Shown: one piece after another, positions 5,342 to 55,978 of the stretch
Layout: each line of letters begins with the position of its first letter
Numbering within the stretch: the first letter of the stretch is position 1
DNA from: Vreelandella profundi
GTDB lineage: Bacteria; Pseudomonadota; Gammaproteobacteria; Pseudomonadales; Halomonadaceae
DNA: 64,000 nucleotides
Direction: 5' to 3'
NCBI RefSeq assembly: GCF_019722725.1
Contig: NZ_CP077941.1
Coordinates: 2,604,001-2,668,000 of the forward strand
Notes under the pieces: generated by a model
Database searches by the model: none
The model's input: the letters and a program-made list of their open reading frames with translations, nothing else
What the model was told of the DNA's origin: nothing
Position numbers and translations under genes: made by a program

Positions 5342-5355
5342 CCACAAACCACAAA
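5342..5355. repeat. Tandem 7-bp duplication
   Basis: CCACAAA occurs twice head to tail in the gap after the NtrC-like gene. This is one of several short tandem duplications in non-coding DNA of this window. Confidence 0.6.
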
Positions 5356-5371
5356 ATCAAAAAAGACACAT

Positions 5372-5397
5372 AAAAAAAACCCCCGCGGGCGCGGGGG
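5372..5397 (-). terminator. Rho-independent terminator (minus strand)
   Basis: A 7-bp all-GC stem CCCCCGC/GCGGGGG with a 4-base loop (5380-5397) is followed, reading the minus strand, by eight T (A-tract 5372-5379). It would end transcripts coming from the minus-strand lipoprotein gene, about 145 bases beyond its stop codon. Confidence 0.8.
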
Positions 5398-5404
5398 CGA
5401 AAAA

Positions 5405-5461
5405 GATGATAAATCGTGTGGAGCAGCCGCAGGGAACAGACAGCTGATTCGACTTATCATC
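5405..5461 (-). other. Long stem-loop in the 3' region of the lipoprotein gene; possible 3'UTR RNA
   Basis: GATGATAAATCG (5405-5416) pairs with CGACTTATCATC (5450-5461) in 11 of 12 positions, with a 33-base loop. On the minus strand this stem lies directly before the terminator at 5372-5397, so a processed or independently started RNA of roughly 100 bases could end there. No convincing promoter was found. This is structure only; an RNA product is inference. Confidence 0.35.
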
Positions 5462-5511
5462 GTAGGGACCGGTACTTTCTGTTCAAACGCTGGCCTTAGC
5501 CTTAAGGCTGC

Positions 5512-5545
5512 GCTAAAAACAGAACTTAGCTAAAAACAGAACTTA
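5512..5545. repeat. Perfect 17-bp tandem duplication beginning at a stop codon
   Basis: GCTAAAAACAGAACTTA occurs twice head to tail (5512-5528 and 5529-5545). The last three bases of the right copy are the stop codon (TAA on the minus strand) of the lipoprotein gene, so the duplication starts exactly at that stop. Confidence 0.9.
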
Positions 5546-6076
5546 CGAATTACTTGATGTTTCATCATCGTCATTGGCATTGCTGTCACCAGGCATTGGA
5601 TCCGTGCCTTCACCGAAACCCGCCTCATCTTCATCTGGATTCATGGTGCCTTCAGCAGGCTCATCCATAGTACCTTCGGGCATTGTCTCGTCTGTGGACA
5701 TAGGATCCTCAGAAGACATAGTATCTTCAGAAGACATAGAACCCTCAGCGCCAGCACCTATGCTTTGATTCATTGAGCCCTGAGAAGCAGGATCTTCATT
5801 TAGACCGGGATCCTGTTCCATGGCTGGCTCTTCGCTCATGCCGGCAGCGGGTTCAGCCGTAGTGTCTTGCTCTAATGGGGCAGACTCTTCAGCAGGCTGC
5901 GGTACCGCAGCGTCTTCACCGCTGTCTCCGCAACCCGCTAATACAATTACGCTGGCAGCGGTTGCCATCATACATAGGGTCAGCCAGTGAGGACGCTTGA
6001 CTGACGGTTGATCTAAAGTGGTTTGATTATCGGTCATAGCCAGATCGTTATTAACGCGGTCACATTGCTTGTCCAT
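5543..6076 (-). CDS. Acidic, low-complexity lipoprotein of unknown function
   Basis: 177 residues from the ATG at 6076, which has a strong GGAGGTGG site 6 bases upstream; a longer reading from TTG would swallow that site. After a cytoplasmic lead of about 30 residues comes a hydrophobic segment ending in a lipobox, VIVLAGCGDSG, so the mature protein is predicted to be lipid-anchored at Cys. The rest is nearly all Asp, Glu, Ser, Met, Pro and Gly. It includes a repeated MSSED-type hexapeptide encoded by an 18-bp triplicate at 5697-5750. Such composition suits a disordered envelope protein in a halophile. I do not recognise a family. It has its own terminator and is divergent from proV. Confidence 0.7.
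   Translation of the reverse strand: MDKQCDRVNNDLAMTDNQTTLDQPSVKRPHWLTLCMMATAASVIVLAGCGDSGEDAAVPQPAEESAPLEQDTTAEPAAGMSEEPAMEQDPGLNEDPASQGSMNQSIGAGAEGSMSSEDTMSSEDPMSTDETMPEGTMDEPAEGTMNPDEDEAGFGEGTDPMPGDSNANDDDETSSNS
5697..5750. repeat. In-frame 18-bp tandem repeat, three copies
   Basis: Units GACATAGGATCCTCAGAA, GACATAGTATCTTCAGAA and GACATAGAACCCTCAGCG lie head to tail inside the lipoprotein gene. They encode degenerate six-residue repeats around MSSED on the minus strand. Confidence 0.85.
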
Positions 6077-6486
6077 AATTACCACCTCCAAACTTGAAAC
6101 TATTTAGCTCGCTATCAGCCAGCCTTAACTTAAAACATTACTCATACGCCTTCCTTACACTTCGCGTGCCACTTATCTTTTTAAAATTAAATAATTATTA
6201 AAAAACAGCATCTTATAAAATAAAAATTATAATTTATCTTATTTATCGCTCACATTTAAGTGGGTAAAAAATGGCACATGTGGCGTTAGTTGCCGCGTTG
6301 AACGGGCCGTTGTGACACACAGCGCCCACCCATGTATAATAATTATTAATAAATTACTCAGCTGAATCTCTTATTTTTTTATGAATACCGTGTATCGCTG
6401 CCTCCATTGTCGTGATCCCTCTCATCCAGGTGGTCTAACCGGAGTGACGCTACACGGCTAATCTGCTCAACAAAAAGGCATCGTCG
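6077..6486. other. Intergenic region between the lipoprotein gene and proV
   Basis: 410 bp between divergent genes. The stretch around 6175-6250 is strongly AT-rich (runs of A, T and TTAA) and stands out from the GC-richer surroundings. The proV promoter described separately lies at 6312-6340. The stretch 6345-6486 would be the proV leader, about 140 bases. I found no ORF or tRNA in this gap. Confidence 0.6.
6312..6340 (+). promoter_or_regulatory. Near-consensus sigma-70 promoter for proVWX
   Basis: -35 GTGACA (five of six to TTGACA, 6312-6317), a 17-base spacer, and -10 TATAAT (6335-6340, perfect). Transcription would start near 6347, leaving a leader of about 140 bases before proV. An AT-rich stretch lies just upstream, as at many osmotically controlled promoters; that regulation is inferred. 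Confidence 0.65.
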
Positions 6487-7689
6487 ATGGATCAAACACG
6501 ACCCGTCAAAATTCAAGTGCGCGGTTTAAGCAAAGTCTTTGGCAAGCATCCCCAAAAAGCCATTGAGCTTCGCAATCAAGGCATGAAGCGTCCAGAGATT
6601 CTGGAAAAAACAGGCCAGACACTCGGGCTTTCTAATATCTCCTTTGATGTCTATGAGGGAGAGCTGCTTGTCATCATGGGACTATCAGGCTCCGGCAAAT
6701 CAACGCTGATCCGCTGCCTCAACCGTCTTATTGAAACCACTGAAGGTGAGATCATCATCGACGGTGAGAACATTCCAACCTTAAAAGAAAAGGCGCTGTT
6801 AGAATGCCGTCGCCGCCACTTTTCAATGGTATTTCAAAATTTTGCGCTTTTCCCTCACCGGACCGTTCAGCAGAATGCTGAATTTGGCCTAGAAATTCGC
6901 GGCGTTGAGAAGACAGAACGGCATAAAATTGCCCACCGTTCGCTCCAGCAGGTTGGTCTTGAAGGATGGGAGGATGCTTATCCCAACCAGCTTTCTGGCG
7001 GCATGCAGCAGCGCGTTGGCTTAGCGCGCGCGCTGGCCAACGATGCGACGGTGCTGTTAATGGACGAGGCCTTTTCGGCACTCGACCCGCTGATTCGCAA
7101 AGACATGCAGCAAGAGCTTTTGCAGCTACAGTCTAAAATGCAAAAGACCACGGTGTTCATCACTCACGATCTTGATGAGGCGCTCAACATTGGCGACCGG
7201 ATCGTGCTGCTGAAAGATGGCGAAGTCGTGCAAATTGGCACGCCCGAAGAGATTCTCACCCAGCCGGCAGATGACTATGTGCGGCGCTTTATCCAAGGCG
7301 TTGACCGCGCGCGCATATTAACCGCTGAAAGTGCTATGCGCCCATTGCGCTCGACCGCTCGCGATAGCGATGGCCCGCGCACTGCGCTACACCGTATGCG
7401 TGACCATAGCATCGACTCTATTTATGTTATCGACCGTGACCGTCGCCTGCTCGGTTTATTAGAGGCCGATGCGGCTAGCCGCGCGATTGAGGAAGGCTCC
7501 AGCTCAATCATCCCCTACTTAACCCAAGATTTCCGCAAAGTCCCCATGGACGAACCGCTGCACAATCTGTTTGCCATGTTCAGTGAAAAAAGCTTCCCCA
7601 TCGCCGTGACTGATCAGCAACAGCAGCTGCTTGGCGTGGTGGTAAAAGGCGCGGTACTTGATGAACTGGCACGAGCAGGAGAGCAATAA
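6487..7689 (+). CDS. proV: Glycine betaine/proline ABC transporter, ATP-binding protein
   Basis: A 400-residue ATPase of the ProV/OpuAA type. The long N-terminal lead (SKVFGKHPQKAIELRNQG) is typical of this family. Walker A is GLSGSGKST near residue 65, the signature is LSGGMQQRVGLARAL, and Walker B is VLLMDEAFSALDP. Two CBS-type repeats follow from about residue 285 to the end; in OpuA these sense ionic strength. It energises uptake of betaine-type solutes through ProW. AAGG lies 8-9 bases before the ATG. The stop TAA shares its last A with the proW start (TAATG), so translation is probably coupled. Confidence 0.93.
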   Translation: MDQTRPVKIQVRGLSKVFGKHPQKAIELRNQGMKRPEILEKTGQTLGLSNISFDVYEGELLVIMGLSGSGKSTLIRCLNRLIETTEGEIIIDGENIPTLKEKALLECRRRHFSMVFQNFALFPHRTVQQNAEFGLEIRGVEKTERHKIAHRSLQQVGLEGWEDAYPNQLSGGMQQRVGLARALANDATVLLMDEAFSALDPLIRKDMQQELLQLQSKMQKTTVFITHDLDEALNIGDRIVLLKDGEVVQIGTPEEILTQPADDYVRRFIQGVDRARILTAESAMRPLRSTARDSDGPRTALHRMRDHSIDSIYVIDRDRRLLGLLEADAASRAIEEGSSSIIPYLTQDFRKVPMDEPLHNLFAMFSEKSFPIAVTDQQQQLLGVVVKGAVLDELARAGEQ

Positions 7690-8519
7690 TGGATATCCCT
7701 CGCATTCCGCTTGGCAGTTGGATCGAAACGGGCCTCACATGGCTAACCAGCGAATACTCATCGGTAACCCGGGGCATCTCGCGCTTCACTCAAACCGGCA
7801 TTGATGTCTTAAACGACAGCTTAATGTGGCTACCTGAATGGGCGTTGCTGGCGCTGATCGCGCTCTTGTGCTGGAAACTGGCTGGCACTCGCTTAGCCAT
7901 CGGCGCCATTGCGGGCCTAGCGCTGATTTGGAATCTGGGGCTTTGGAATCCCATGATTGAGACGCTCACGCTGGTCGTTTTTGCCACCTTCGTTGCCGTG
8001 ATTATCGCGCTACCGGTAGGCATTACCGCGGCTTTATCGGACCGACTTTATCGGTTCATTATGCCGACGCTGGATTTCATGCAGACCATGCCGGCCTTCG
8101 TATATTTGATTCCCGCGATTCCCTTTTTCGGCATTGGCTCGGTATCGGCCATTTTCGCGACCGTTATTTTCTCCATGCCGCCAGCGATACGATTTACAAC
8201 GCTAGGCATTCGCCAAGTACCGGTAGAGCTGATTGAAGCCGCCGACGCCTATGGCGCAACGCGGAGCCAGAAACTATTTAAAGTACAGCTGCCGCTCTCG
8301 TTACCGACGGTGATGGCTGGTATCAACCAAACCATTATGCTCGCCCTTTCCATGGTGGTGATTGCCGCAATGATTGGTGCAGATGGTTTAGGCAGCGAGG
8401 TGTGGCGCGCCATTCAACGCCTGCGCCCCGGTGATGGTTTTGAAGCAGGTATTGCGGTCGTCATTCTGGCGATGTTGCTTGATCGCTTAACGCAGTCGCT
8501 CAGAAAAACGCGTCAATAA
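7689..8519 (+). CDS. proW: Glycine betaine/proline ABC transporter, permease
   Basis: A 276-residue inner-membrane protein with a binding-protein-dependent transport domain. Several hydrophobic helices surround a coupling loop (EAADAYGATRSQKLFKVQLP) that matches the EAA motif contacting the ATPase. It is shorter than E. coli ProW (about 350 residues), mainly because the N-terminal extension is reduced. It overlaps proV by one base with GGAGAG just upstream. It forms the channel of the ProVWX system with the neighbouring genes. Confidence 0.92.
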   Translation: MDIPRIPLGSWIETGLTWLTSEYSSVTRGISRFTQTGIDVLNDSLMWLPEWALLALIALLCWKLAGTRLAIGAIAGLALIWNLGLWNPMIETLTLVVFATFVAVIIALPVGITAALSDRLYRFIMPTLDFMQTMPAFVYLIPAIPFFGIGSVSAIFATVIFSMPPAIRFTTLGIRQVPVELIEAADAYGATRSQKLFKVQLPLSLPTVMAGINQTIMLALSMVVIAAMIGADGLGSEVWRAIQRLRPGDGFEAGIAVVILAMLLDRLTQSLRKTRQ

Positions 8520-8574
8520 CGCAATTAGCAGTAGAACGACACATTAATAAATCTATACCCAAGGGAGAACGTGA

Positions 8575-9450
8575 ATGAAACATCGCACATTGAACCTCCG
8601 TATCCGTATGGCCTCGCTGGCACTATTAGCCGGCACCGGTATCGCGGTTAGCAGCGCGGCGCAAGCCGAAGAAGACAAAGGCTCGATTAACCTGGCCTAT
8701 GTGGAGTGGTCATCTGAAGTTGCTTCCACCAACGTTATTGCTGCCGTGCTTGAACAAGCGGGCTATGAGGTTGACCTTACTTCTCTCTCAGCAGCAGCCA
8801 TGTTCCAAGCACTTTCTACGGGTGATGCAGACGCTATCGTTGCCGCTTGGCTGCCGACCACTCACGCCGAATACATGAACCGCTTAGGTGATAACATTGA
8901 AAATCTGGGCGCTAATTTAGACGGTACTAAACTTGGCCTCGTCGTACCCGAGTACGCCGATATCGACTCCATTGCTGATCTTAACGATAACGCCGACAGT
9001 TTTAATGGCGAGATCATCGGTATTGACCCCGGTGCAGGCTTAATGGCGCTGTCCGAAAAGGTTGTGGATACCTATGACCTCGATCTGGATCTGCGTAGTG
9101 GTAGTGGTGCCACCATGACAGCGGCACTCTCTAGCGCCATCAACAACGAAGAAAACATCGTTGTTACCGGTTGGACGCCTCACTGGATGTTCGCTCGTTT
9201 TGACCTTAAATACCTAGATGATCCGGAAAATGTCTACGGCGGTGCGGAGCAGATCCATACGGTCGTTCGTCAAGGTCTCGAAGATGACATGCCTGAAGCC
9301 TATGCAATTCTCGATGCCTTCGAGTGGACACCGGAGCAGATGGGCGAAGTCATGCTTCTCAACCAGGAAGATGGAAGCGATCCTTATGAAAATGCCAAAC
9401 AGTGGGTTGAAGACAACCAAGACGTAGTTGAGCAGTGGCTGGACAGCTAA
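8575..9450 (+). CDS. proX: Glycine betaine/proline ABC transporter, substrate-binding protein
   Basis: 291 residues with a signal peptide (core MASLALLAGTGIAV, likely cut after AQA near residue 31). The mature part fits the OpuAC/ProX fold: INLAYVEWSSEVASTNVIAA near the N-terminus, AAWLPTTHAEYM, GIDPGAGLM, and TGWTPHWMFARFDLKYL. The aromatic residues in these segments are the usual quaternary-ammonium cage. AGGGAG precedes the ATG. It is 55 bp after proW and is followed by a strong terminator, so it closes the operon. The stop codon region is duplicated (9437-9464). Confidence 0.92.
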   Translation: MKHRTLNLRIRMASLALLAGTGIAVSSAAQAEEDKGSINLAYVEWSSEVASTNVIAAVLEQAGYEVDLTSLSAAAMFQALSTGDADAIVAAWLPTTHAEYMNRLGDNIENLGANLDGTKLGLVVPEYADIDSIADLNDNADSFNGEIIGIDPGAGLMALSEKVVDTYDLDLDLRSGSGATMTAALSSAINNEENIVVTGWTPHWMFARFDLKYLDDPENVYGGAEQIHTVVRQGLEDDMPEAYAILDAFEWTPEQMGEVMLLNQEDGSDPYENAKQWVEDNQDVVEQWLDS

Positions 9451-9464
9451 GGCTGGACAGCTAG
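9437..9464. repeat. 14-bp tandem duplication across the proX stop codon
   Basis: GGCTGGACAGCTAA (9437-9450, ending in the stop TAA) is followed directly by GGCTGGACAGCTAG (9451-9464), 13 of 14 identical. The last codons and the stop of proX are thus copied into the untranslated region. Confidence 0.9.
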
Positions 9465-9478
9465 AAAAGCTTGTCGAT

Positions 9479-9516
9479 ACGACGGCAGAGGGCTTTTGCC
9501 CTCTGCCGTCGTTGTA
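9479..9516 (+). terminator. Terminator of the proVWX operon
   Basis: A perfect 15-bp stem (ACGACGGCAGAGGGC with its complement, 9479-9493 and 9498-9512) around a TTTT loop. The T-run after it is weak (TGT), but the stem is very strong. It separates proVWX from the BCCT gene. Confidence 0.85.
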
Positions 9517-9673
9517 AATCTATTTATTATGCAAGGCGACGCATAATACGTTGAATGCTCTGCCAACAGATTTGCTATTGTGGCCGCCTAACCACGCATC
9601 ATTCGATGTCGGTCGACGACCACATTTTGGTTTCTGTACGACCTATTTTTCTGCTCGCCATAGAGAGGCTCCT

Positions 9674-11314
9674 GTGGATAACCACGACGATAAACGCTCC
9701 CCTGAAGAGCCAAGCTCTGAGGGCATACGCGCCCCAGATGGCGCGGCTAACCTTATCGACACGGATTACGTGATCGGTCAGGACAACATTACCACCACTA
9801 CCATGGGTTTCAATCTTGACCTACACGGTAAGGTGTTCAGCATTTCGGCGATAGTCGTCCTGCTGTTTGTGGTATTAACACTGGCGCTGCAAGACACTAT
9901 CGCGCCTATTTATGACGCTATTTTCGGTTTTCTGACCGGTAATTTAGCGTGGTTTTTCATGTCAGCGGCGAATATATTCGTCATTCTCTGCATTGGCCTG
10001 ATTTTCTCGCCATTAGGTAAAATTCGCATTGGTGGTGCCGATGCCAAGCCTGACTATACCTACATGGGCTGGTTTTCAATGCTGTTTGCCGCGGGCATGG
10101 GCATTGGCCTGATGTTCTTCGGCGTCAATGAGCCGCTAACGCATTTTGGCACGTCTCTAAATGGCGGAGACTGGGCGCCACTAGGCGGTGCCGAAGGTGA
10201 TCCTGCCGGTGCTGCAACACTTGCCATGGCGGCGACTATCTATCACTGGGGTTTACACCCTTGGGCGATTTACGCGATTGTGGCGCTGTCGCTAGCGCTG
10301 TTCGCATTTAACAAAGGCCTGCCACTTTCCATGCGTTCCGTGTTTTACCCAATTTTGGGTGAGCGCGTTTGGGGCTGGCCAGGCCATGTGATTGATATTT
10401 TAGCGGTGTTTGCGTCGCTATTTGGCTTGGCGACGTCGTTGGGGTTGGGTGCCAGTCAAGCAGCCGCGGGTCTAACCTACCTGTTCGGCGCCCCTGAAAG
10501 CGATGTCACGATGATCCTGCTCATTGTCGGCATTACGGTTGTCGCCATTGGCTCAATTGTGGCGGGCGTCGACAAGGGCGTGCAGTTGCTCTCCAAGATC
10601 AACATCGCCATGGCGGCGCTGCTGCTTTTGTTTGTGATTGTAGTCGGCCCGACGATGCTGATTTTAACCGGCTTCTTTGAGAACCTCTGGAGCTATGCGG
10701 TTCACTTGCCGGCGCTATCAAACCCGTTTGGCCGTGAAGACGCGAGCTTCAGCCAAGGCTGGACGGCCTTCTACTGGGCGTGGTGGATTTCCTGGTCCCC
10801 TTACGTCGGCATGTTTATCGCGCGGGTATCACGCGGTCGTACGGTACGTGAGTTTTTGATTTCAGTGCTGCTAATACCTTCGGTGGTATCGGTACTGTGG
10901 ATGACCACCTTTGGCGGCACTGCCATTGATCAATTTGTGAGCCAGGGTATTACGGCCGTTCGTGATGCAGGCGTCGATCTACAGCTCTTCATCATGCTGG
11001 AGCAGCTGCCGCTGTCGCAAATCACCTCTTTCATCGCTATTTTGCTGGTGATTATCTTCTTTGTGACGTCGTCTGACTCAGGCTCTCTTGTCATTGACTC
11101 AATCACGGCTGGCGGCAAAGTAGATGCGCCTACGCCACAGCGCGTGTTCTGGGCGATCATTGAGGGTGCCATTGCGATTGCTCTGCTACTAGGCGGTGGC
11201 CTAACCGCGCTGCAGACCATGGCGGTATCTACCGGCTTCCCGTTCACTATTATCCTGCTGGTGGCGTGTTATGCCATCGTCAAAGGATTAATGAGCGAGC
11301 CTAAAGCGGTTTAA
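9674..11314 (+). CDS. BCCT family betaine/carnitine/choline transporter
   Basis: 546 residues from the GTG at 9674, which has AGAGAGG just upstream; the reading extended to 9551 adds 41 residues unlike any transporter start. A polar N-terminal tail of about 45 residues precedes 12 expected membrane helices. Family motifs are clear: GMGIGLMFFGVNEPLTHF, the tryptophan-rich WAWWISWSPYVGMFIARVSR of helix 8, and VTSSDSGS. BCCT carriers import betaine-type osmolytes with Na+ or H+. Its position beside proVWX suggests a second, independently transcribed betaine route. The exact substrate is not readable. Five tandem TAA-containing repeats follow the stop. Confidence 0.93.
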   Translation: MDNHDDKRSPEEPSSEGIRAPDGAANLIDTDYVIGQDNITTTTMGFNLDLHGKVFSISAIVVLLFVVLTLALQDTIAPIYDAIFGFLTGNLAWFFMSAANIFVILCIGLIFSPLGKIRIGGADAKPDYTYMGWFSMLFAAGMGIGLMFFGVNEPLTHFGTSLNGGDWAPLGGAEGDPAGAATLAMAATIYHWGLHPWAIYAIVALSLALFAFNKGLPLSMRSVFYPILGERVWGWPGHVIDILAVFASLFGLATSLGLGASQAAAGLTYLFGAPESDVTMILLIVGITVVAIGSIVAGVDKGVQLLSKINIAMAALLLLFVIVVGPTMLILTGFFENLWSYAVHLPALSNPFGREDASFSQGWTAFYWAWWISWSPYVGMFIARVSRGRTVREFLISVLLIPSVVSVLWMTTFGGTAIDQFVSQGITAVRDAGVDLQLFIMLEQLPLSQITSFIAILLVIIFFVTSSDSGSLVIDSITAGGKVDAPTPQRVFWAIIEGAIAIALLLGGGLTALQTMAVSTGFPFTIILLVACYAIVKGLMSEPKAV

Positions 11315-11370
11315 GTACGGTCTTAAGTACAATCTTAAGGACTATCTTAAGGACTGTCTTAAGTACTATC
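11311..11370. repeat. 12-bp tandem repeat, five exact-length copies, forming five in-frame stops
   Basis: Units of consensus TTAAGKACTATC start at 11311, 11323, 11335, 11347 and 11359. The first holds the natural stop TAA (11312-11314). Because 12 is a multiple of three, each later unit places another TAA in the same frame. Confidence 0.95.
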
Positions 11371-11380
11371 GCTGCTATGC

Positions 11381-11415
11381 AAACGGGCAACCCTCTGGGT
11401 TGCCCGTTTTGCTTT
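11381..11415. terminator. Bidirectional terminator between the BCCT and exonuclease genes
   Basis: AAACGGGCAACCC (11381-11393), loop TCT, then GGGTTGCCCGTTT (11397-11409) and further T. A 13-bp perfect stem with A and T flanks can serve both convergent genes. Confidence 0.85.
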
Positions 11416-11435
11416 CTAGCCTTTCAACCTTATGT

Positions 11436-12161: not shown

Positions 12162-12162
12162 C

Positions 12163-14073: not shown

Positions 14074-14171
14074 GGAGTCTCCTAAAGCGTAACGTTCAAA
14101 AGTTAAGATGAATTGTGTAGTGGTGGCCCCTGGAGGTAAACCCTATGGGGATAATAAAAGCAGTCAACAGC

Positions 14172-14202
14172 AAAAAGCCCGGTGCTAATAGCACCGGGCT
14201 TT
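14172..14202 (-). terminator. Terminator for the DUF4168 gene
   Basis: AAAGCCCGGTGC (14174-14185), loop TAATA, GCACCGGGCTTT (14191-14202). On the minus strand the 12-bp stem runs into a five-T tract. Confidence 0.88.
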
Positions 14203-17425: not shown

Positions 17426-18555
<1,130 letters not shown>

Positions 18556-25721: not shown

Positions 25722-27581
25722 TTATTGGCGCTGCGCAAGCTCCATTATCAAGCTTGCCAAACGCTGGCGCTGCTCCTTATCTAACTTTTGCCCGGCGCGC
25801 TCCTGCGCCAGCAACGCCTCGTACTCCTCCTGCGGAGAACGCTGGCGATGAACGTACTGCAAGTGCTCGACCAAGCCATGCAGCTCGGCCTCCCGATCCG
25901 CTTTTGCGATCAACAAATCTCGCTTAGCGAAGGCCGCCAACGCCTGCCCCTGCTGGCTACCTTGAAAATGCGCCAATACCACTTGCGGGCTGCGATAACG
26001 CCCTGCTTTAAGCAGCGTAATCAGCTCTTGGCATAGAGGCGCATCATCATCGTCAGGCAGCCAATCCAAATGATCCGGCAACGCGCCGACCAAATTAGGC
26101 TCATGCAGCAACAGCTGCACCACACGCCCCACGGGCGAAAGCACCTGAGAGCGTGAGCGCGACGATCGATCAGGCGCCGCATGTGAAACGCTCGGCACCG
26201 CTGATGACACTGATTCGGATTCCAGCTGATCAACAGGCGGTGCTTTCTGCAACGCGTGCTGCTGGGCCGCTTGAACGCGCCTTTCGAGCAACACTTTCAG
26301 CTGCTCTTGGGCCAACCCGCTGCGTTGAGCCAACGACTCAAGCAATAGCGATTTGAGCATCCCTTCAGGCACTTTGTTCAATGCTTCCAGCACTTGACTG
26401 GCAAATCGCTCGCGCCCTTCGACCGTATTTAAGTCGCGCCCCTGAGCCGCCTGTTCGAACAAAAACTCCGACAGCGGCATGGCACAGGTCACGCGGTCTT
26501 GAAATGCCTGGGTGCCTTCACGGCGCACTAACGAGTCCGGATCATCACCTTCTGGCAAAAATAAAAAGCGCGCTTCACGGCCATCAAGCATTTGCGGCAG
26601 TGCCGTTTCCAGCGCTCGGCTAGCCGCCTGGCGACCGGCGCGATCACCATCGAAACAAAACACCACGCGGCTCACCAGCCGAAACAGGCGAGTCAAATGA
26701 TCTTCGGTGGTAGCAGTGCCAAGCGTTGCCACGGCGTTATGGATGTCGTACTGCGCTAATGCCACCACGTCCATGTAGCCCTCGACAATCACCAACTGCT
26801 CAAGCTTGTTCGACGCCTGACGCGCCTCAAACAAGCCGTACAACTCGCGGCCTTTATGAAACACCGGTGTTTCAGGCGAGTTGAGGTACTTGGGCTGATC
26901 ATCACCCATGACTCGGCCGCCGAAAGCAATGGTTCGCCCGCGCAGATCACGAATCGGGAACATCACCCGGTCGCGAAAGCGATCGTAGGTACGCCCAGAC
27001 TCTTCACGATGAATCAGCAGGCCGTATTCCACCTGAACCGGCTCACCAATTCCACGCTCGCTGAGATGCTGCTTTAGCGCCTCCCATCCCGCCGGGGCAT
27101 AGCCGATACCATAGGTCTTGATCACATCGTCCGAGAGCCCACGATCCAACAAGTAACCCTGGGCCGACTTACCTTCCTGCATTTTCAACCGCTCACGATA
27201 AAAGCTCGCGGCAAGCTCAAGCAGGTTAACGCCCTCTTTGCGTTTTTTTTCACGCTGCTGGGCACGCGGGTCATCAGCCCCCTCGCGGGGCACTTCAATA
27301 CCCAAACGCCCGGCTAGCTGCTCTATGGCTTCGGGAAACGGTAGCTTGTCGTACTCCATCAAGAAGCGTAGTGCATTACCATTAGCTCCGCAGCCAAAGC
27401 AGTGATAGAACTGCTTATCAGCACTGACCGTGAACGATGGAGTTTTCTCTTGATGGAAGGGACAGAGCCCAGAATAGTTACGGCCGGCCTTTTTAAGCTG
27501 CACACGCTCACCAACCACCTCAACCACATCTACGCGGCCTAACAGGTCGTCAATGAAACGCTGTGGAATTTGGCCTGCCAT
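25722..27581 (-). CDS. dnaG: DNA primase
   Basis: 619 residues. The N-terminal zinc domain has C-P-F-H and C-F-G-C (LCPFHQEKTPSFTVSADKQF then YHCFGCGANGNA). The RNA polymerase core includes PIRDLRGRTIAFGGRVM, and the TOPRIM segment has VIVEGYMDVVALAQ and FCFDGDRAGRQAA with the acidic metal-binding residues. The C-terminal part, after a variable linker, is the DnaB-helicase-binding domain. It makes primers at the replication fork. It lies between rpsU and rpoD in the classical order, preceded by an attenuator-like terminator at 27703-27732. Confidence 0.98.
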   Translation of the reverse strand: MAGQIPQRFIDDLLGRVDVVEVVGERVQLKKAGRNYSGLCPFHQEKTPSFTVSADKQFYHCFGCGANGNALRFLMEYDKLPFPEAIEQLAGRLGIEVPREGADDPRAQQREKKRKEGVNLLELAASFYRERLKMQEGKSAQGYLLDRGLSDDVIKTYGIGYAPAGWEALKQHLSERGIGEPVQVEYGLLIHREESGRTYDRFRDRVMFPIRDLRGRTIAFGGRVMGDDQPKYLNSPETPVFHKGRELYGLFEARQASNKLEQLVIVEGYMDVVALAQYDIHNAVATLGTATTEDHLTRLFRLVSRVVFCFDGDRAGRQAASRALETALPQMLDGREARFLFLPEGDDPDSLVRREGTQAFQDRVTCAMPLSEFLFEQAAQGRDLNTVEGRERFASQVLEALNKVPEGMLKSLLLESLAQRSGLAQEQLKVLLERRVQAAQQHALQKAPPVDQLESESVSSAVPSVSHAAPDRSSRSRSQVLSPVGRVVQLLLHEPNLVGALPDHLDWLPDDDDAPLCQELITLLKAGRYRSPQVVLAHFQGSQQGQALAAFAKRDLLIAKADREAELHGLVEHLQYVHRQRSPQEEYEALLAQERAGQKLDKEQRQRLASLIMELAQRQ

Positions 27582-27605: not shown

Positions 27606-27621
27606 CGCTGAATCGCTGAAT
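27606..27621. repeat. 8-bp perfect tandem duplication upstream of dnaG
   Basis: CGCTGAAT occurs twice head to tail at 27606-27613 and 27614-27621, about 25-40 bases before the dnaG start, in its leader. Confidence 0.7.
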
Positions 27622-32889: not shown

Positions 32890-32913
32890 CTAAATACTAC
32901 CTTAAATACTACC
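32890..32913. repeat. 12-bp tandem duplication in the apaH upstream gap
   Basis: CTAAATACTACC (32890-32901) is followed directly by TTAAATACTACC (32902-32913), 11 of 12 identical, about 30-50 bases upstream of the apaH start. Confidence 0.8.
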
Positions 32914-43755: not shown

Positions 43756-43782
43756 AAAAGCCGGCTTTCGCCGGCTTTTTTT
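43756..43782. terminator. Bidirectional terminator between speD and lpxL
   Basis: AAAAGCCGGC (43756-43765), loop TTTC, GCCGGCTTTT (43770-43779), then TTT. It serves both convergent transcripts. Confidence 0.93.
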
Positions 43783-45910: not shown

Positions 45911-45944
45911 GTGAAATAACGTGACTAGACTGTGGTTAGCCGGC

Positions 45945-46919
45945 TTAAGTCTCGAACAGCGCTTCCAGAGAAAGGCCCTGCTTTTCTAGCGAACGGCGCA
46001 GCTTCTTGAGCGCCTCCACTTGAATCTGACGAACGCGCTCGCGGGTTAGGCCAATTTCAGCACCCACTTCTTCAAGGGTTGCCGACTCATGACCACGCAG
46101 CCCAAAGCGACGCACCACCACTTCACGCTGTTTTTCGCTAAGCTCGTCCAGCCAAAGATCGACATGCTCTTTAACATCGCCGTCAACCAAGCAGGCTTCC
46201 GGGCCTTGCACCTCATCATCAGCCAACGTATCAATAAGAGGTTTATCGCTTTCCCCGCCCATTGGGTAGTCAACCGATGACACGCGCTCATTGAGGCCGA
46301 GCATTTTCTTCACTGCCTCAACCGGCTTATCCAGATGCTCGGCGATTTCTTCGGCGGTGGCCTCATGGTCAAATTTCTGCGTTAACTCACGCGCCGCCCG
46401 CAGGTAAATATTCAGTTCCTTGACGACATGAATCGGCAAGCGAATCGTGCGCGTCTGGTTCATCAGCGCACGCTCGATGGTTTGACGAATCCACCAGGTG
46501 GCATAGGTCGAAAACCGAAAGCCGCGTTCAGGGTCAAATTTCTCTACCGCGCGAATCAGGCCTAAGTTGCCCTCTTCAATCAGATCCAGCAGCGTTAGGC
46601 CGCGGTTGAGATAGCGACGCGCGATTTTGACCACCAGTCGAAGGTTGGACTCAATCATCCGCGAGCGCCCCATCGGGTCACCCTTACGCGCTAGGCGGCC
46701 ATAATAAACTTCTTCTTCAGGCGTCAATAATGGCGAAAAACCGATTTCGTTGAGATAGATTTGCGTCGCATCCAAGCTTTGGGTCGATTGACGACCCTCA
46801 CGCCCTAGCGCTTTTTCAAAAGCATCTTCTTCTACCGCAATTTCATCATCGGTATCGTCAAGCGCTTCCTCCGCAGCATCCAGGTCAACCTCCTGTAGAT
46901 CTTTCTCCAACATACTCAT
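45945..46919 (-). CDS. rpoS: Stationary-phase/general stress sigma factor RpoS
   Basis: 324 residues. An acidic N-terminus precedes region 1.2 ([20 protein letters not shown]). Region 2 has [20 protein letters not shown] and [20 protein letters not shown], and region 4 has [20 protein letters not shown]. It is shorter than RpoD and lacks region 1.1 and the large non-conserved insert, as expected. It directs stationary and stress transcription, including osmotic stress. It follows nlpD in the classical order with a 165-bp gap holding a 14-bp tandem duplication. Confidence 0.97.
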
Positions 46920-46990: not shown

Positions 46991-47018
46991 ATTGTTATGT
47001 GACGATTGTTATATGACG
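46991..47018. repeat. 14-bp tandem duplication in the nlpD-rpoS gap
   Basis: ATTGTTATGTGACG (46991-47004) and ATTGTTATATGACG (47005-47018) lie head to tail, 13 of 14 identical, about 70-100 bases upstream of the rpoS start. Confidence 0.85.
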
Positions 47019-48146: not shown

Positions 48147-48153
48147 GGAAATC

Positions 48154-49742: not shown

Positions 49743-49773
49743 TCCACGACCGCGCAGCTCATCGGGTAATAAG

Positions 49774-50520: not shown

Positions 50521-50612
50521 TGTAGCTCTCCTCGATATACCGGCAATGGCCGCCGTTCAATTCGCAACGCTTAATTTGTAATGCGTAAGTCACAACGTTC
50601 AGTTCATCGCCA

Positions 50613-51644
50613 TCAGCTTGCCGCGATCAGTTCACTCAGCACCGCGGTAGCAAAACTTCCCCGCGGCAATGCAAAGGAAAGCCGAACGGCCTCGGCTTCC
50701 CACGTAAGCTGTGGCTCTAATAACCGCATCCGCAGCGCACGGCGGGCTTGCTTTACGCCACTTCGTTCCAACCCTTCACAAAGCGCCGGATATTGCTGCA
50801 ACAGCCGTGACTCGTAGCCGGCGACCTCGCCCTGACTAGGCTCGCCAACGCCCCACAAAATTCCAGTGGGATGAACATCTAACGCGGCGGCACGCGCACT
50901 CAGCGTGTCATCGGTTTGGTCAATGCTAAACACGCTTTGCGTACCGTCCAGCATGAGGGTGTCGCCTGCAAGAGGCTGACGCCAAGTGCCATCCGCCAAG
51001 CGTTCGCTGAGCAGCTGGTTAAATAAGAAACTGCGTGCGGTAGAAAGCATCATACCCTGCCGATCGTCGCGCTTTCGCCAACCTCGGTTAAGTAACGCTT
51101 CGGCACGCTGAAGGTTGCGACCCTCAGGACCAAAGCGCTGGGGGCCGAAATAGTTAGGCACGCCATGCTGGCAAAGCGTTTCCCAGCGGCGGGTAAAATC
51201 TTCCTGATGAATCGCCTCACCGCTGATCCGCAGCACGAATCTATTGGTGCGATGAACTCCACGCTTGAGTTTACGCGGATGGCGCACCTGCTCGACGACC
51301 GTAACGCCCAGCGAATTAAGCGATTGTTCCAGATCCGCCGGCGCATCGCGACCCGGCAGGTGCACGCTTAGCCATTGGCGCGTCACGGCAATGCGGTCTT
51401 TCATACCGGAATAACCAATATCGCGGGGCGTAACGCCGCACAGCCGACTCAGCGTATTGACGACGTCTAACGTCGTTTGATTACGCTTTTCTACTCTCAG
51501 CCAAAGATGCTCGCCATGCGCTTCTGGAATAAAATCAAGCTGCTCATCTACCCAGAAATCTTCTGGCTGAGCGCGGTACTGACCTGGCTGCGGGGGGCCG
51601 AACTGAGCATCAAGATAGCGCTGCCATGTCGGCATATTAATCAT
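50613..51644 (-). CDS. truD: tRNA pseudouridine(13) synthase
   Basis: 343 residues; the first Met (51644) or the Met three codons later may be the start. [20 protein letters not shown] holds the catalytic Asp. [21 protein letters not shown] and [15 protein letters not shown] follow. It makes pseudouridine at position 13 of tRNA-Glu. It overlaps ispF by 8 bases, the normal order in gammaproteobacteria. Confidence 0.96.
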
Positions 51645-52134
51645 TAAGCGTCTCTATTCGATTTAGCAGCACCACGGCTTCCGCAGCGATGCCTTCGCCG
51701 CGCCCGGTAAAACCCAGCCGTTCGGTGGTGGTGGCTTTAACGTTAACCTGGCCAAGCGCAATATTAAGGTCGCTTGCGATAACGGCGCGCATTGCCTCGA
51801 TATGCGGCGCCATTTTGGGCGCCTGTGCCATCAGCGTGGCATCAAGGTTAACCACGCCATAGTCCTGCCCTCTCACAAGCCCGACCACATGGCGCAGCAG
51901 GTCACGACTATCAGCGCCTGCCCAGGCGGGGTCGGTATCCGGAAAGTGGCGACCAATATCACCCAGTGCGCACGCACCCAGGAGTGCATCGCTAATGGCG
52001 TGTAGCAACACATCGCCATCGGAGTGGGCAACAAAACCATGCTCAAACGGCAGTTTTACGCCGCCTATCATTAGGTGGTCGCCGGGGCCGAAGCGGTGTA
52101 CATCAAATCCATGGCCAATACGCATTACAGGCAC
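51637..52134 (-). CDS. ispF: 2-C-methyl-D-erythritol 2,4-cyclodiphosphate synthase
   Basis: 165 residues. [20 protein letters not shown] starts the fold with metal ligands Asp and His. [20 protein letters not shown] is the second conserved segment, and [20 protein letters not shown] ends it. It cyclises the isoprenoid precursor in the MEP pathway. It overlaps both truD (8 bases) and ispD (10 bases). The Met at 52125 is an alternative start. Confidence 0.97.
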
Positions 52135-52847
52135 CTTTCTGACGTTTCATCGGTTTGGGAGGCAAGCGCCTGGGACGCAATGATCGCGGCAGCCAGCGCT
52201 AAATCATCCGGATGCGTGACTTTCAAATTATCGCGCCGGCCGCTGACCAATTGAGGGCTTGCACCCAGCGCTTCAACCGCCGAGGCTTCATCGGTCACGA
52301 CCGTGTTGTGGCGGCGAGCCGTTTCCAAGGCACGCAGAAGCAAGGCATAGCGAAATCCTTGAGGCGTCAGCGCATGCCATAGGCCATCACGAGACTCGGT
52401 GCGAACGCTCAGGCCTTGCTGATTACCACGTTTCATGGTGTCGGCAACGGGCATCGCTAGCAGTGCACCGCCGGGATGATTGGCCGCGGCGCGATAAAGT
52501 GCCAGTAAGTCACCGTGCGTGATACAGGGGCGCGCCACGTCGTGCACCATCACGATATCGTCACCCTGAGCCTCGATGGCATGCAGCGCATTCAATACGC
52601 TGTCCATCCGCTCACTGCCGCCCGACACGCGCTGCCAATCGGCAAACGGCACCAAATCTGGGGCAAACCAGCGGTCGTCATCATCAAGGCACAGCACCAG
52701 CCGAGCGCTTGGAAATGCGCCATGCAGGCGCTTTAGCGTATGCGCCAGTATCGGTTGGCCGGACAGCGTTAAATACTGCTTGGGTTTACTGGCGCCCATC
52801 CGGCGACCCTGGCCCGCGGCAGGCACTATCAGCCACGTTTGACTCAC
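52125..52847 (-). CDS. ispD: 2-C-methyl-D-erythritol 4-phosphate cytidylyltransferase
   Basis: 240 residues. [20 protein letters not shown] is the nucleotide-binding start, with [11 protein letters not shown] and MPVADTMKR later, and [16 protein letters not shown] at the end. It transfers CMP to MEP in the third step of the MEP pathway. It lies between ftsB (4-base overlap) and ispF. Confidence 0.96.
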
Positions 52848-53182
52848 GGAGGCGGCTCTTGCGGAGCGATTAAGCCGGCGTTAATGCCAATCAGCTCATT
52901 TTTGATCGCCACACCGGGCACCCAGAAAAACTGCTCGTCGGTACGCACCATCCCCATATCGCTGCGCGCCCGCTCTTCGATAGCATCCAGACCGGTTTTT
53001 AAATCCGTCACCTCAGCCGCAAGCCGCGCATTGCGCTCACGCATGGGCAGATTGGTCGCTTCCTGTACCGCTACTCGCTGCTCTACATTCTGCAAATCTC
53101 GCCAGCCGCCGTTGCCCAGCCATAGCTCATATTGAAGCAGTGCTACTACTGCGAGCAGCGCCATCACTAGCCATTTACGCAT
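52844..53182 (-). CDS. ftsB: Cell division protein FtsB
   Basis: 112 residues: a short cytoplasmic start, one membrane helix (WLVMALLAVVALLQYELWLG), then a periplasmic coiled coil (LQNVEQRVAVQEATNLPMRE) and the conserved segment GLDAIEERARSDMGMVRTDE. It forms the FtsQLB complex at the septum. It is the first gene of the ftsB-ispD-ispF-truD-surE-pcm-nlpD-rpoS run. Confidence 0.95.
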   Translation of the reverse strand: MRKWLVMALLAVVALLQYELWLGNGGWRDLQNVEQRVAVQEATNLPMRERNARLAAEVTDLKTGLDAIEERARSDMGMVRTDEQFFWVPGVAIKNELIGINAGLIAPQEPPP

Positions 53183-53257
53183 CGCTGCTCTCCTCTGTAA
53201 GTCCGCTAAATTTAAAACGCATTATGCCATTAAGGGGCAACACCAGCGAGCCGCCGT

Positions 53258-54406
53258 TTATTTAAATGGCAGCGCATCATGAGCCGCCTCGCGGTAGGCG
53301 CGCACCTGCTCACCCTCTTCGTGGCAAAACTGCCCAACGGCTGCGGCAAGCCCTGGGTGGCTGATGTAATGCAGTGAGCGCACTCGCTGCGGTGTAAAGC
53401 CGCGCACGAGCTTGTGCTCGCCCTGGGTACCAGGATCAAATAGCGTCAGGCCGTGCTGCAAGCAGTACTCGATGCCCTGGTAATAACAGGCTTCAAAATG
53501 CAGGCAGTCAGCAACGACCTCGCTTCCCCAGTAGCGCCCGTAGAGCGAATCGGTGCCACGAAAATAGAGCGCCGCCGCGACCGGGCGCCCTTCACTGTGC
53601 GCCTGAACTAATACCAGCGCGTCCGGCATGGTTTGGCGCAGGCGTTCAAAAAAATCATGATTGAGATACGGCGCGCGTCCACGCTCGTGGTAGGTCATCG
53701 TATAGCAGCGAAAGAAATGCGCCATCGCCGCTGGCGTAATGGCATCACCTTCTAGCCTTGTCACGCTTAAGCCCTGGTCTGCGACCAGGCGTCGCTCACG
53801 CTTGATCATCTTGCGCCGCTTGGAGGTGAGCGTCGCAAGAAAGCCATCAAAATCACCAAAGCCTCGATCGCGCCACTGAAACTGCACGCCTTCACGAGTG
53901 ATGAGATCAGGACACTGCGCCTGCCAGGCAGTGACATCAGCCTCATTGGCAAATAATAAATGCCAGCTGGAAAGCGCCTCACTCACGCACTGCTCACGCC
54001 ACGCCTGCGCCAAAAAAGCACGTATTGCACCGGCATCAACCTGCTTAGCGATCAGCGTACGAATCCCCGGCACTGGCGTGAACGGCACGGCACTGAGTGC
54101 TTTAGGATAGTAGCGGCCACCGGCGCGCTCTAAGGCTTCCGCCCAGCCCCAATCAAATACATACTCACCGTAAGAATGATGTTTACGGTACATCGGCATC
54201 GCTGCGACTAGCTGCTCATCCTGCCAGACGCTCAGGTGACAAGGCTCCCAACCCGTCGCCATGCTGACGGAGCCACTGGCCTCTAAAGCGTGTAAAAAAG
54301 CGTGGCGCAAAAATGGCTGATCGTTATCTACCAGTGAATCCCATTGGCTTGCCGTGACGGCCGCCATAGTGGGTAGAATGGTGAGCGAAAGCGGGCGTAA
54401 CGACAT
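53258..54406 (-). CDS. FemAB-like acyltransferase (DUF482, peptidoglycan-biosynthesis-like)
   Basis: 382 residues from the ATG at 54406, with GGAGA upstream; the frame continues into a strong inverted repeat that is more likely leader. Sequence typical of PF04339: ALEASGSVSMATGWEPCHLS, MYRKHHSYGEYVFDWGWAEA, SKRRKMIKRERRLV, and FDPGTQGEHKLVRGFTPQRV. The family has a GNAT fold and resembles FemAB peptide-bridge enzymes, but its bacterial role is unproven. It is a single gene upstream of which the ALDH gene is divergent. Confidence 0.85.
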   Translation of the reverse strand: MSLRPLSLTILPTMAAVTASQWDSLVDNDQPFLRHAFLHALEASGSVSMATGWEPCHLSVWQDEQLVAAMPMYRKHHSYGEYVFDWGWAEALERAGGRYYPKALSAVPFTPVPGIRTLIAKQVDAGAIRAFLAQAWREQCVSEALSSWHLLFANEADVTAWQAQCPDLITREGVQFQWRDRGFGDFDGFLATLTSKRRKMIKRERRLVADQGLSVTRLEGDAITPAAMAHFFRCYTMTYHERGRAPYLNHDFFERLRQTMPDALVLVQAHSEGRPVAAALYFRGTDSLYGRYWGSEVVADCLHFEACYYQGIEYCLQHGLTLFDPGTQGEHKLVRGFTPQRVRSLHYISHPGLAAAVGQFCHEEGEQVRAYREAAHDALPFK

Positions 54407-54423
54407 AGCATCTCCGGTGAGTA

Positions 54424-54475
54424 CAGGGCTTGCAGAGCGTGCAGGGCTAGCGCACTGTCCACTCTGCAAGCCCTG
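54424..54475. repeat. Perfect 14-bp inverted repeat, FemAB-like/ALDH divergent region
   Basis: CAGGGCTTGCAGAG (54424-54437) and its exact complement CTCTGCAAGCCCTG (54462-54475) are separated by 24 bases, which contain a further small stem (GTGC/GCAC) and a second GCAGGGCT. It lies in the leader of the FemAB-like gene. Confidence 0.85.
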
Positions 54476-54566
54476 GCCTGCGCCACTTTACACTAACTGT
54501 TTAGATGGACGCTTTATATGAACAGTTTAATCACTCCACGCCGAAAGCGGCGCACAAGGATGGGCC

Positions 54567-55922
54567 ATGACGCGCGATCTAACGGATTATTTTCAAACGC
54601 AGCGCCAAGCTGCGGACCAACTGCCCTACCCGACGCTAAAAATTCGGCGTGATCGGCTAGCACGCTTAGCCCGCATGACCAAGCACCATCAGCTAGACAT
54701 TATACGTGCGATTCAAACGGATTTCGGCCAACGCAGTGACGTCGAAATACGCATGGCAGAAATTAGCGCGGTGCTGCATGCGATTCACTATGCCAGGCGA
54801 CACCTATGGCGCTGGATGCGGCCAGGCATGGCAAGCATGTCGTGGCGGCTGCTACCCGCTCGCGCACGCATTGCGCCTCAACCGCTGGGCGTGATTGGCG
54901 TGATGTCGCCCTGGAACTACCCCTGGAGCTTGGCATTAATGCCCATTGTGGACGCCTTTGCCGCTGGCAACGTCGCCATGCTCAAGCCCAGCGAGCACAC
55001 CGCCAACACCAGCGCTCTGCTTAAGCGCTTAGCCTCGCAATACTTCACGCCTGAAGAACTGTGCGTGGTAGAAGGCGGCGTAGAAATGGCGCGTCGCTTT
55101 AGCGAACTCCCGTTTGGCCATCTAGTGTTTACCGGCTCCACCGCCGTTGGGCGCCAGGTAGCCCAAGCCGCCGCGCGAAATCTAACCCCAACGACGCTGG
55201 AGCTAGGCGGTAAATCGCCGGCAATTGTGGCCGGCGATGCGGATCTTAATCAAGCCGCCGCTGCGATTATCTTCGGCAAAGGAATGAATGCCGGACAAAC
55301 CTGTATCGCCCCTGATTACGTGCTGGTTGAAAGCCGTCATCTTAGCGCCTTAGTAACGGCGTTAAGCCATGCGATTGAGCAGCAGCGGCCTAATGATCAC
55401 GCCGTCACGCATGCGATCAATACGGTTCACCAAGATCGCCACGAGCATATGCTGCAAGAAGCCCGCGACCACGGCTGCAGGATCATTGATCATGGTGCCC
55501 ATGCACCGGCACTGATTATTGACCCTCACCAAGGGCTGCAGGTCATGCGTGAAGAAATTTTTGGCCGCTGCCTCCCCGTCATTGGCGTGAGCGATATGCC
55601 AGCGGCAGTCAGCTACGTCAATGCTCGACCACACCCGCTGGCGCTGTATGTGTTTACGCACGATAAGAGCTTGCAAGAGCAGCTATTGCGCACCACTCGC
55701 TCCGGTGCTCTGGTGTTTAACGCAACGCTCCTTCATCACGCGGTGCCTTCTCTGCCGTTTGGCGGCGTAGGCGAAAGCGGTATGGGTGCTTATCATGGCC
55801 GTCACGGTTTTGAGCGCTTCAGTCATTTACGCGGCGTGTTTTATCAAGCTAAACGCACACCTAGTCGCATGCTCTATCCGCCGTATCGGCGCTGGCTCAT
55901 AAAGCTCATTGGGCTGGGCTAA
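54567..55922 (+). CDS. Aldehyde dehydrogenase, coniferyl-aldehyde dehydrogenase type
   Basis: 451 residues of the short, class-3-like ALDH group. PLGVIGVMSPWNYPWSLALM is the cofactor entry, LVFTGSTAVGRQVAQAAARN and TLELGGKSPAIV follow with the catalytic Glu, and GKGMNAGQTCIAPDYVLVES holds the catalytic Cys. The end RWLIKLIGLG is hydrophobic, as in enzymes of this class that may touch membranes. It oxidises aldehydes with NAD(P); the coniferyl-type label reflects family resemblance, and the real substrate is unknown. A 24-bp tandem repeat follows the gene. Confidence 0.9.
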   Translation: MTRDLTDYFQTQRQAADQLPYPTLKIRRDRLARLARMTKHHQLDIIRAIQTDFGQRSDVEIRMAEISAVLHAIHYARRHLWRWMRPGMASMSWRLLPARARIAPQPLGVIGVMSPWNYPWSLALMPIVDAFAAGNVAMLKPSEHTANTSALLKRLASQYFTPEELCVVEGGVEMARRFSELPFGHLVFTGSTAVGRQVAQAAARNLTPTTLELGGKSPAIVAGDADLNQAAAAIIFGKGMNAGQTCIAPDYVLVESRHLSALVTALSHAIEQQRPNDHAVTHAINTVHQDRHEHMLQEARDHGCRIIDHGAHAPALIIDPHQGLQVMREEIFGRCLPVIGVSDMPAAVSYVNARPHPLALYVFTHDKSLQEQLLRTTRSGALVFNATLLHHAVPSLPFGGVGESGMGAYHGRHGFERFSHLRGVFYQAKRTPSRMLYPPYRRWLIKLIGLG

Positions 55923-55930
55923 AGCTTATG

Positions 55931-55978
55931 CGTTAATGACCGATAGTTAATATGGGTTAATGATCGATAGGTAATAGG
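55931..55978. repeat. 24-bp imperfect tandem duplication after the ALDH gene
   Basis: Two 24-bp units at 55931-55954 and 55955-55978 share 20 of 24 bases (core GTTAATGAYCGATAG). They start 8 bases after the ALDH stop codon and fill most of the gap to the hybrid kinase gene. Confidence 0.8.

What the first reader, a model, noticed from the sequence alone, without database searches (positions are those of the whole stretch)
5342..55978. Recurrent short tandem duplications in non-coding DNA, concentrated at stop codons
Eight head-to-tail duplications with units of 7-24 bp lie in gaps (5342, 5512, 9437, 11311, 17426, 32890, 46991, 55931), plus one 8-bp pair at 27606. Four of them contain or start at a stop codon. 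Outside coding repeats I saw only one in-frame case (5697-5750). Unrelated sequences are duplicated, so this is not a mobile repeat; it looks like a local duplication process that is tolerated in gaps and possibly favoured after stops.
Basis: partly seen in the sequence, partly recalled or inferred. Interest (0 to 1): 0.75.

Follow-up and report, generated by a model that had tools for sequence, protein, structure and literature searches.

The report
Fourteen-base tandem duplications in Halomonas DNA
The genome keeps making small head-to-tail copies of its own DNA, most often about 14 bases long and different at each place, and they survive mainly where they do no harm; this gives a natural system for studying how tandem repeats are born.

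Summary
The duplications are real: gap arrays are about 20 times commoner than in shuffled gaps. They belong to a wider signature. Exact tandem duplications in 347 kb of Halomonadaceae gaps peak at 12-15 bp (35 found, none in shuffles), with 10 at 9-11, 7 at 16-20 and none at 21-45; none of 10 bp or more was found in 158 kb of Pseudomonas-group gaps (one locus, 51 loci) or 37 kb of E. coli gaps. In genes, 19 of 23 such units are in frame and 13-14-bp units are absent, so the process acts everywhere and selection filters it. Copies favour convergent gaps and the stop side, but G000 shows no significant excess in the first 60 bases after stops (18 seen, 15.7 expected): tolerance rather than attraction. 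Units are mostly locus-specific and turn over quickly. The rpoS-upstream case (46991) differs: a clade-conserved 14-bp copy of an older element. The enzyme is unknown; Ku end joining, loss of the PolA nuclease domain and the known topA mutator residues are not supported. Five of seven smaller samples from other families of the order also carry arrays; G029 is at shuffle level.

The parts
5342..5355 (.). 7-bp exact pair (CCACAAA x2), downstream of the stop at 5304
   Evidence: in the length class expected near chance; G011 differs here
5512..5545 (.). 17-bp exact tandem duplication; its second copy ends with the stop codon of the minus-strand gene 5543-6091
   Evidence: second copy absent in G011
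5697..5748 (-). in-frame 18-bp unit x2.9 inside the minus-strand gene 5543-6091
   Evidence: G011 lacks part of the array; no Pfam family for the gene at E 0.001
9437..9463 (.). 14-bp duplication spanning the TAA stop (9448-9450) of the OpuAC-like gene 8575-9450
   Evidence: a decayed second copy is visible in G011
11307..11370 (.). 12-bp unit array (about 5 copies, also read as 24-bp period) covering and following the stop at 11312-11314 of the BCCT transporter gene
   Evidence: the region is 36 bp shorter in G011
17426..17451 (.). 13-bp period incomplete pair spanning the stop (17443-17445) of the minus-strand gene 17443-18552
   Evidence: shared with G011 with one mismatch; not in the TRF list
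27606..27621 (.). 8-bp exact pair in the gap between the dnaG-like gene (25722-27581) and the small gene upstream of it
   Evidence: near-chance length class
32891..32913 (.). 12-bp pair upstream of the metallophosphatase-like gene (divergent gap)
   Evidence: present in G011
43760..43778 (.).
   Evidence: present in G011; the 10-mer itself is common elsewhere
46991..47018 (.). 14-bp pair between the nlpD-like (M23/LysM) and rpoS-like genes: the conserved exception
   Evidence: both copies kept in G011, G003, G016, G005, G007; a single copy in four other named loci; domains of the flanking genes
55927..55976 (.). 24-bp imperfect duplication 4 nt after the stop of the aldehyde-dehydrogenase-family gene 54567-55922
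   Evidence: the extra 24 bp are absent from all 5 relatives aligned

Best explanation
Shown: in this genome and its relatives, short head-to-tail duplications of unrelated DNA occur with a preferred unit of 12-15 bp (mode 13-14), and many are arrays of 3-5 copies. They occur in gaps and in genes, but in genes nearly all have in-frame lengths, and sequence next to starts holds few, so survivors gather downstream of stops and in convergent gaps. Inferred: one mutational process acts throughout the genome and selection filters it. Births happen when a strand end is displaced or re-joined about one and a third helical turns from its origin (offset nicks, or an uncut strand-displacement flap that is ligated), and ordinary slippage then changes copy number; some births may instead use short existing repeats. 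Which enzyme sets the length near 14 is not known. A few copies, such as the 14-bp pair upstream of rpoS, are kept because they fall in useful sequence.
For: Exact-duplication spectrum in 347 kb of Halomonadaceae gaps: 9-11 bp 10 (shuffled 2.0), 12-15 bp 35 (0), 16-20 bp 7 (0), 21-45 bp 0. 193 distinct TRF units of 10-24 bp: 12:20, 13:32, 14:44, 15:32, 16:11. Genes (2,590 kb): 12:6, 13:0, 14:0, 15:10, 18:2, 21:1; 19 of 23 of 10 bp or more are in frame, against 14 of 47 in gaps (Fisher P=3.7e-5). Tandem copies make up 22 of 95 G000/G011 gap indels of 10 bp or more under a permissive test (random windows 1-5%), 15 of 52 at 12-20 bp. Turnover: 18 of 29 mappable G000 arrays are not arrays in G011, 12 of the 18 with a length difference of 11 bp or more. 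Side contrast.
Against: Under a stricter 80% test only 10 of 135 G000/G011 gap indels of 5 bp or more are tandem. Of 27 exact two-copy cases of 11 bp or more, 15 extend 0-2 bp beyond the unit but 12 extend 3-9 bp, so existing short repeats or remnants of third copies are involved in many. Bases more than 120 nt from the nearest stop hold no array in G000 (0 in 6.6 kb) and few elsewhere, which plain tolerance does not predict. The trait is uneven: G008 0.36 per kb, G020 1.89, and five Vreelandella-like loci have none in about 6.6 kb together. The contrast between lineages is one of degree for imperfect arrays: Pseudomonas-group gaps have 26 TRF arrays in 141.8 kb, four times shuffles, 10 of them with 13-14-bp units. 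No enzyme or sequence motif was identified.
Confidence: 0.66

Rival explanations
1. Classical replication slippage between short pre-existing direct repeats, with nothing special about the lineage except tolerance in gaps.
For: 12 of 27 exact two-copy cases extend 3-9 bp beyond the unit. In one G000 gain (16-bp unit) the shorter G011 allele carries a 4-bp direct repeat, TTAG, at that spacing.
Against: Slippage should fall off with unit length, but counts rise from 10-11 to 13-14 bp (10 at 9-11 against 35 at 12-15, P=0.003). It should act in Pseudomonas and E. coli too, where no exact duplication of 10 bp or more was seen in the sampled gaps. 8 of 27 cases have no extension at all.
Confidence: 0.2
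2. The arrays are selected regulatory elements (tandem protein- or RNA-binding sites), so their length reflects binding geometry.
For: 6 of 7 arrays in divergent gaps of the 464-kb block persist in G011, against 2 of 8 mappable ones in convergent gaps (P=0.04). The rpoS-upstream pair is conserved.
Against: Units are mostly unrelated between loci, densest in convergent gaps that hold no start, and turn over fast there.
Confidence: 0.08
3. A stop-linked process: duplication is provoked by the end of translation or transcription.
For: Stop-side excess, 11 stop-spanning against 2 start-spanning arrays in G000, none far from stops in the nearest-stop class, and a stop-side lean of position.
Against: No significant excess in the first 60 nt after stops in G000 (18 against 15.7) and no peak at the stop itself. 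In-frame duplications of the same sizes occur inside genes, 2 of 23 within 60 nt of the 3' end and 7 of 23 within 60 nt of the 5' end.
Confidence: 0.06

Closest known systems
De novo tandem duplications of E. coli topA R168C mutators (PMC6954433; abstract, introduction, part 1 of the Results and the Discussion read)
   Same: Head-to-tail duplications, 2-19 bp in galK, described as independent of existing repeats; origin unexplained.
   Different: TopA of G000, G020 and G029 keeps R35, R168 and the tyrosine at E. coli position 319. Here the sizes peak at 13-14 bp and the trait is natural and shared by many species.
Tandem repeats of Borg elements (PMC9879509; section 2.1.3, part 1 of the Discussion and search passages read)
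   Same: Mostly unique unit at each locus, fast turnover, gaps and genes, in-frame in genes.
   Different: Borg units are rich in A on the coding strand. Here units are A+T-rich with no clear strand bias (A 0.318, T 0.298 in co-directional gaps; A 0.301, T 0.314 on the leading strand; not tested for significance), and they lie on a chromosome.
TAACTGA direct repeats of Beggiatoaceae (PMC4679880; outline with abstract read)
   Same: Abundant intergenic direct repeats that contain stop triplets.
   Different: One fixed heptamer, mostly just upstream of starts; here loci have their own units and start-proximal sites are the poorest.
Short tandem repeats in gaps of Portiera from Bemisia tabaci, a Halomonadaceae relative (PMC5322561; search passages read)
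   Same: Related bacteria; [quoted passage not shown]
   Different: Reduced genome that lost dnaQ, mutL and other genes; unit lengths were not compared here.

Membership tests
topA-type duplication mutator | altered R168 (or R35) in TopA | tested here: not met
   R35, R168 and Y319 kept in the three genomes read: G000, G020, G029
topA-type duplication mutator | duplications independent of existing repeats | tested here: inconclusive
   15 of 27 with 0-2 bp extension, 12 of 27 with 3-9 bp
Borg-type tandem repeats | locus-unique units, fast turnover | tested here: met
   40 of 57 units unique in 864 kb; 18 of 29 not arrays in G011
Borg-type tandem repeats | A-rich units on the coding strand | tested here: not met
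   A 0.318 against T 0.298 in co-directional gaps
Ku/LigD end joining with fill-in | Ku present | tested here: not met
   Ku in 1 of 38 genomes (G002), not in G000
Flap-processing (PolA 5' nuclease) defect | 5'-3' exonuclease domain lost | tested here: not met
   PF02739 over the cut-off in 38 of 38 genomes; its activity is not testable here
Mobile small dispersed repeat | same unit at many loci | tested here: not met
   40 of 57 units unique in 864 kb at one mismatch or less; 15 of the other 17 have 1-3 further hits
TAACTGA repeats | heptamer TAACTGA as unit | tested here: not met
   none of the 138 array units listed is that heptamer (read by eye)

The most novel reading that the evidence does not exclude
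Halomonadaceae and some relatives carry an undescribed DNA transaction with a footprint of about 14 nt (paired offset incisions or a displaced strand of fixed length) that constantly gives birth to tandem repeats from non-repeated DNA, and so is a natural source of new repeat loci and of new regulatory copies such as the one upstream of rpoS.
Probability: 0.2. Interest if true: 0.8.

Novelty: new variant of a known kind. Interest (0 to 1): 0.57.

Why it matters
How a tandem repeat first arises from single-copy DNA is called unknown in the E. coli topA study (PMC6954433, Discussion). Here is a set of bacteria in which it seems to happen often, with a length preference that constrains the mechanism and a gene/gap contrast that separates mutation from selection. 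It makes that question testable by mutation accumulation and gene removal in a cultivable genus. I saw no report of the 12-15-bp peak or of the Halomonas trait in the listings of searches, which cover open-access papers only and of which only the best-ranked rows were shown.

Tried and rejected
Stop-specific origin: tested by placing arrays at random within the same gaps; no significant excess near stops in G000, a weak stop-side lean when genomes are pooled. PolA nuclease loss and Ku end joining: not supported by gene content. TopA mutator residues: unchanged. Strand-specific origin: no clear leading-strand or coding-strand bias of unit composition. Target motif: with GC-matched windows the word AAACAG is in 19 of 193 units against 3.9 expected and CTAAG in 16 against 5.2, but most units lack them, AAACAG is also above shuffles in Pseudomonas-group and E. 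coli gaps, and CTAAG is not enriched in Halomonadaceae gaps as a whole; no target site is claimed. Two indel estimates differ with the strictness of the test (10 of 135; 22 of 95 of 10 bp or more); both are reported. An 8-bp repeat that I first read by eye in the ancestor of one duplication was wrong; the G011 sequence shows 4 bp. The E. coli contrast rests on 33-37 kb of gaps; the Pseudomonas-group sample is larger but comes from one neighbourhood (rpoS) at 51 loci, a few of them Stutzerimonas, Azotobacter or otherwise labelled. Gene borders come from my own simple caller, not from annotation.
Full report
The window lies at 2,604,001-2,668,000 of a single 3.64-Mb contig (G000). Its closest hit among the held relatives is G011 (93% identical protein; about 91-95% DNA identity over most long stretches). 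G007, given as the same genus, has a contig of the same length (283,531 bases) as a named Vreelandella titanicae BH1 contig, so the genus is Vreelandella or close to it (formerly Halomonas, recalled). I checked the listed repeats with Tandem Repeats Finder and by reading, called genes with a simple codon-based script, and compared 864 kb of this genome, 480 kb of G011 and smaller samples of other genomes, 80 named loci of up to 21 kb around rpoS and 250 kb of E. coli K-12.

The repeats are real and not chance. In 298 gaps (45.4 kb) around and in the window TRF finds 30-31 arrays; dinucleotide shuffles give 1.55 on average (20 shuffles, maximum 3). Genes hold 40-42 arrays in 418 kb against 17-24 in codon shuffles. 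A second sample from elsewhere in the genome gives the same density (29 arrays in 43.4 kb). The window has 7 arrays in 4.8 kb, about 2.4 times the density of its surroundings (P=0.04).

The central new result is the unit length. Counting exact head-to-tail duplications by unit, each distinct unit once, 347 kb of Halomonadaceae gaps give 5, 3, 2, 6, 12, 11, 6, 1, 3, 2, 0, 1 for units of 9 to 20 bp, and none from 21 to 45; five shuffles give 2.0 at 9 bp and none from 10 bp up. Shorter units (4-8 bp) are dominated by chance pairs, with a modest excess that falls with length. So there is a distinct peak at 12-15 bp. 193 distinct TRF units of 10-24 bp show the same peak at 14 (orthologous near-copies such as the rpoS pair add a little). 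In 158 kb of Pseudomonas-group gaps and 37 kb of E. coli gaps there is no exact duplication of 10 bp or more (P=2e-8 and 0.009 against the Halomonadaceae rate). For imperfect arrays the contrast is one of degree. TRF densities per kb of gap are 0.36-1.89 in eight blocks from seven genus genomes, 0.81 in six more, 0.85 and 0.69 in 11 Vreelandella-like and 9 other Halomonadaceae loci, 0.18 in 51 Pseudomonas-group loci (four times shuffles, 10 of 26 units of 13-14 bp, orthologous sites possibly counted repeatedly) and 0.22 in 9 other gammaproteobacterial loci, 0.12 in E. coli and 0.06 in G029, both near shuffles. Seven genomes from other families of the same order give 10 arrays in 12.8 kb, so the trait is wider than the family.

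Genes show the same process through a filter. In 2,590 kb of Halomonadaceae genes exact units are 12 bp in 6 cases, 13 in 0, 14 in 0, 15 in 10, 18 in 2 and 21 in 1; 10- and 11-bp units number 1 and 2 (codon shuffles 2.5 and 0.5), and one further unit is longer than 33 bp. 19 of 23 units of 10 bp or more are in frame, against 14 of 47 in gaps. The listed case at 5697 belongs here. In Pseudomonas-group genes (822 kb) there are 2 units of 10 bp or more and in E. coli (209 kb) none.

Position. In G000 (60 arrays) convergent gaps have 1.49 arrays per kb, co-directional 0.68 and divergent 0.37; 11 arrays overlap a stop and 2 a start; over all sampled genus blocks 30 against 5. In the other block set (G011, G016, G003, G008) divergent gaps are denser (0.78 per kb) than co-directional ones (0.54), so the order is not uniform. 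Within stop-to-start gaps the first 60 nt hold 18 arrays against 15.7 expected in G000, 33 against 27.6 with G005 and G020 added, and 13 against 9.4 in the other set (P=0.22, 0.07, 0.07), while mean relative position leans to the stop side (0.40, 0.40, 0.39; P=0.026, 0.001, 0.025). Bases more than 120 nt from a nearest stop hold no array in G000 (0 in 6.6 kb) and 5 in 11.4 kb with G005 and G020 added. I read this as tolerance downstream of genes and loss near starts, with at most a weak stop-side lean; the emptiness of distant bases is not explained.

Turnover and history. Of 31 arrays around the window, 29 could be placed in G011 and 18 are not arrays there; 12 of those 18 differ in length by 11 bp or more. 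Tandem copies make up 22 of 95 gap indels of 10 bp or more between the two (15 of 52 at 12-20 bp) by a permissive test, and 10 of 135 indels of 5 bp or more by a strict one. In the window, the extra 24 bp at 55927 are absent from all five relatives aligned, the second copy at 5512 is absent in G011, the array at 11307 is longer than in G011, and the pairs at 32891, 9437 (decayed) and 17426 are shared with G011.

One listed case has another history. The 14-bp pair at 46991 lies between an nlpD-like gene (LysM, M23) and an rpoS-like gene (four sigma-70 regions). Both copies are kept in G011, G003, G016, G005 and G007 while the sequence around them varies. Of 21 rows aligned, four have both copies (the window, V. 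neptunia, V. titanicae, Halomonas ventosae NRS2HaP1), four have one close copy (V. lutescens, V. zhaodongensis, V. andesensis and Halomonas sp. RGIG5693) and the others are more diverged. So a 14-bp duplication probably happened in the ancestor of one clade and was retained. The AACAAT core resembles the A-rich Hfq site of the E. coli rpoS leader; that resemblance is recalled, not tested.

Mechanism. Shown: duplications of unrelated sequences, preferred size, filter by frame, scarcity near starts, fast turnover. Inferred: joining of a strand end displaced by about 14 nt. Known routes tested: Ku is absent from G000 and found in 1 of 38 genomes; the PolA 5' nuclease domain is present in 38 of 38; TopA keeps the residues whose change gives duplications or deletions in E. 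coli (PMC6954433). 15 of 27 clean two-copy cases have 0-2 bp of terminal homology and 12 have 3-9 bp, so slippage between short repeats may account for part; in one gain the G011 allele has a 4-bp repeat at the right spacing. There is no clear strand bias of composition and no convincing target motif.

Limits. Gene calls are my own; one genome per species is held, so polymorphism could not be seen; the Pseudomonas-group sample is one neighbourhood; syntenic G000 and G011 blocks are not fully independent, although identical units were counted once; near-identical orthologous units may be counted more than once.

Noticed in passing
window 46991-47018 (upstream of the rpoS-like gene 45945-46919): Clade-conserved 14-bp tandem copy of an element (CGTCATATAACAAT on the rpoS strand) that is single in some other Vreelandella; possibly an Hfq or promoter site in the rpoS leader.
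   Followed up: partly
L101:7574-7958 (G020): A 7-bp array TACCTGC of about 55 copies in a convergent gap; the same heptamer occurs inside the 14-bp unit TATTTCTACCTGCT of a G000 array.
   Followed up: no
gaps of Halomonadaceae samples: The word AAACAG is in 19 of 193 array units (3.9 expected with GC-matched windows); the longer word TTAAAACAG occurs 16 times in 347 kb of gaps against 5.0 in shuffles.
   Followed up: partly
G004, G006, G017, G018, G019, G022, G024: These genus genomes have three or four matches to the type IA topoisomerase family (G000 has two).
   Followed up: no
L135, L137, L138, L139, L151: These five Vreelandella-like loci have no gap array in about 6.6 kb of gaps together, so the density seems to vary between species.
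   Followed up: no
G000 and relatives, bases more than 120 nt from the nearest stop: Almost no arrays lie there (0 in 6.6 kb in G000), which simple tolerance does not explain.
   Followed up: no
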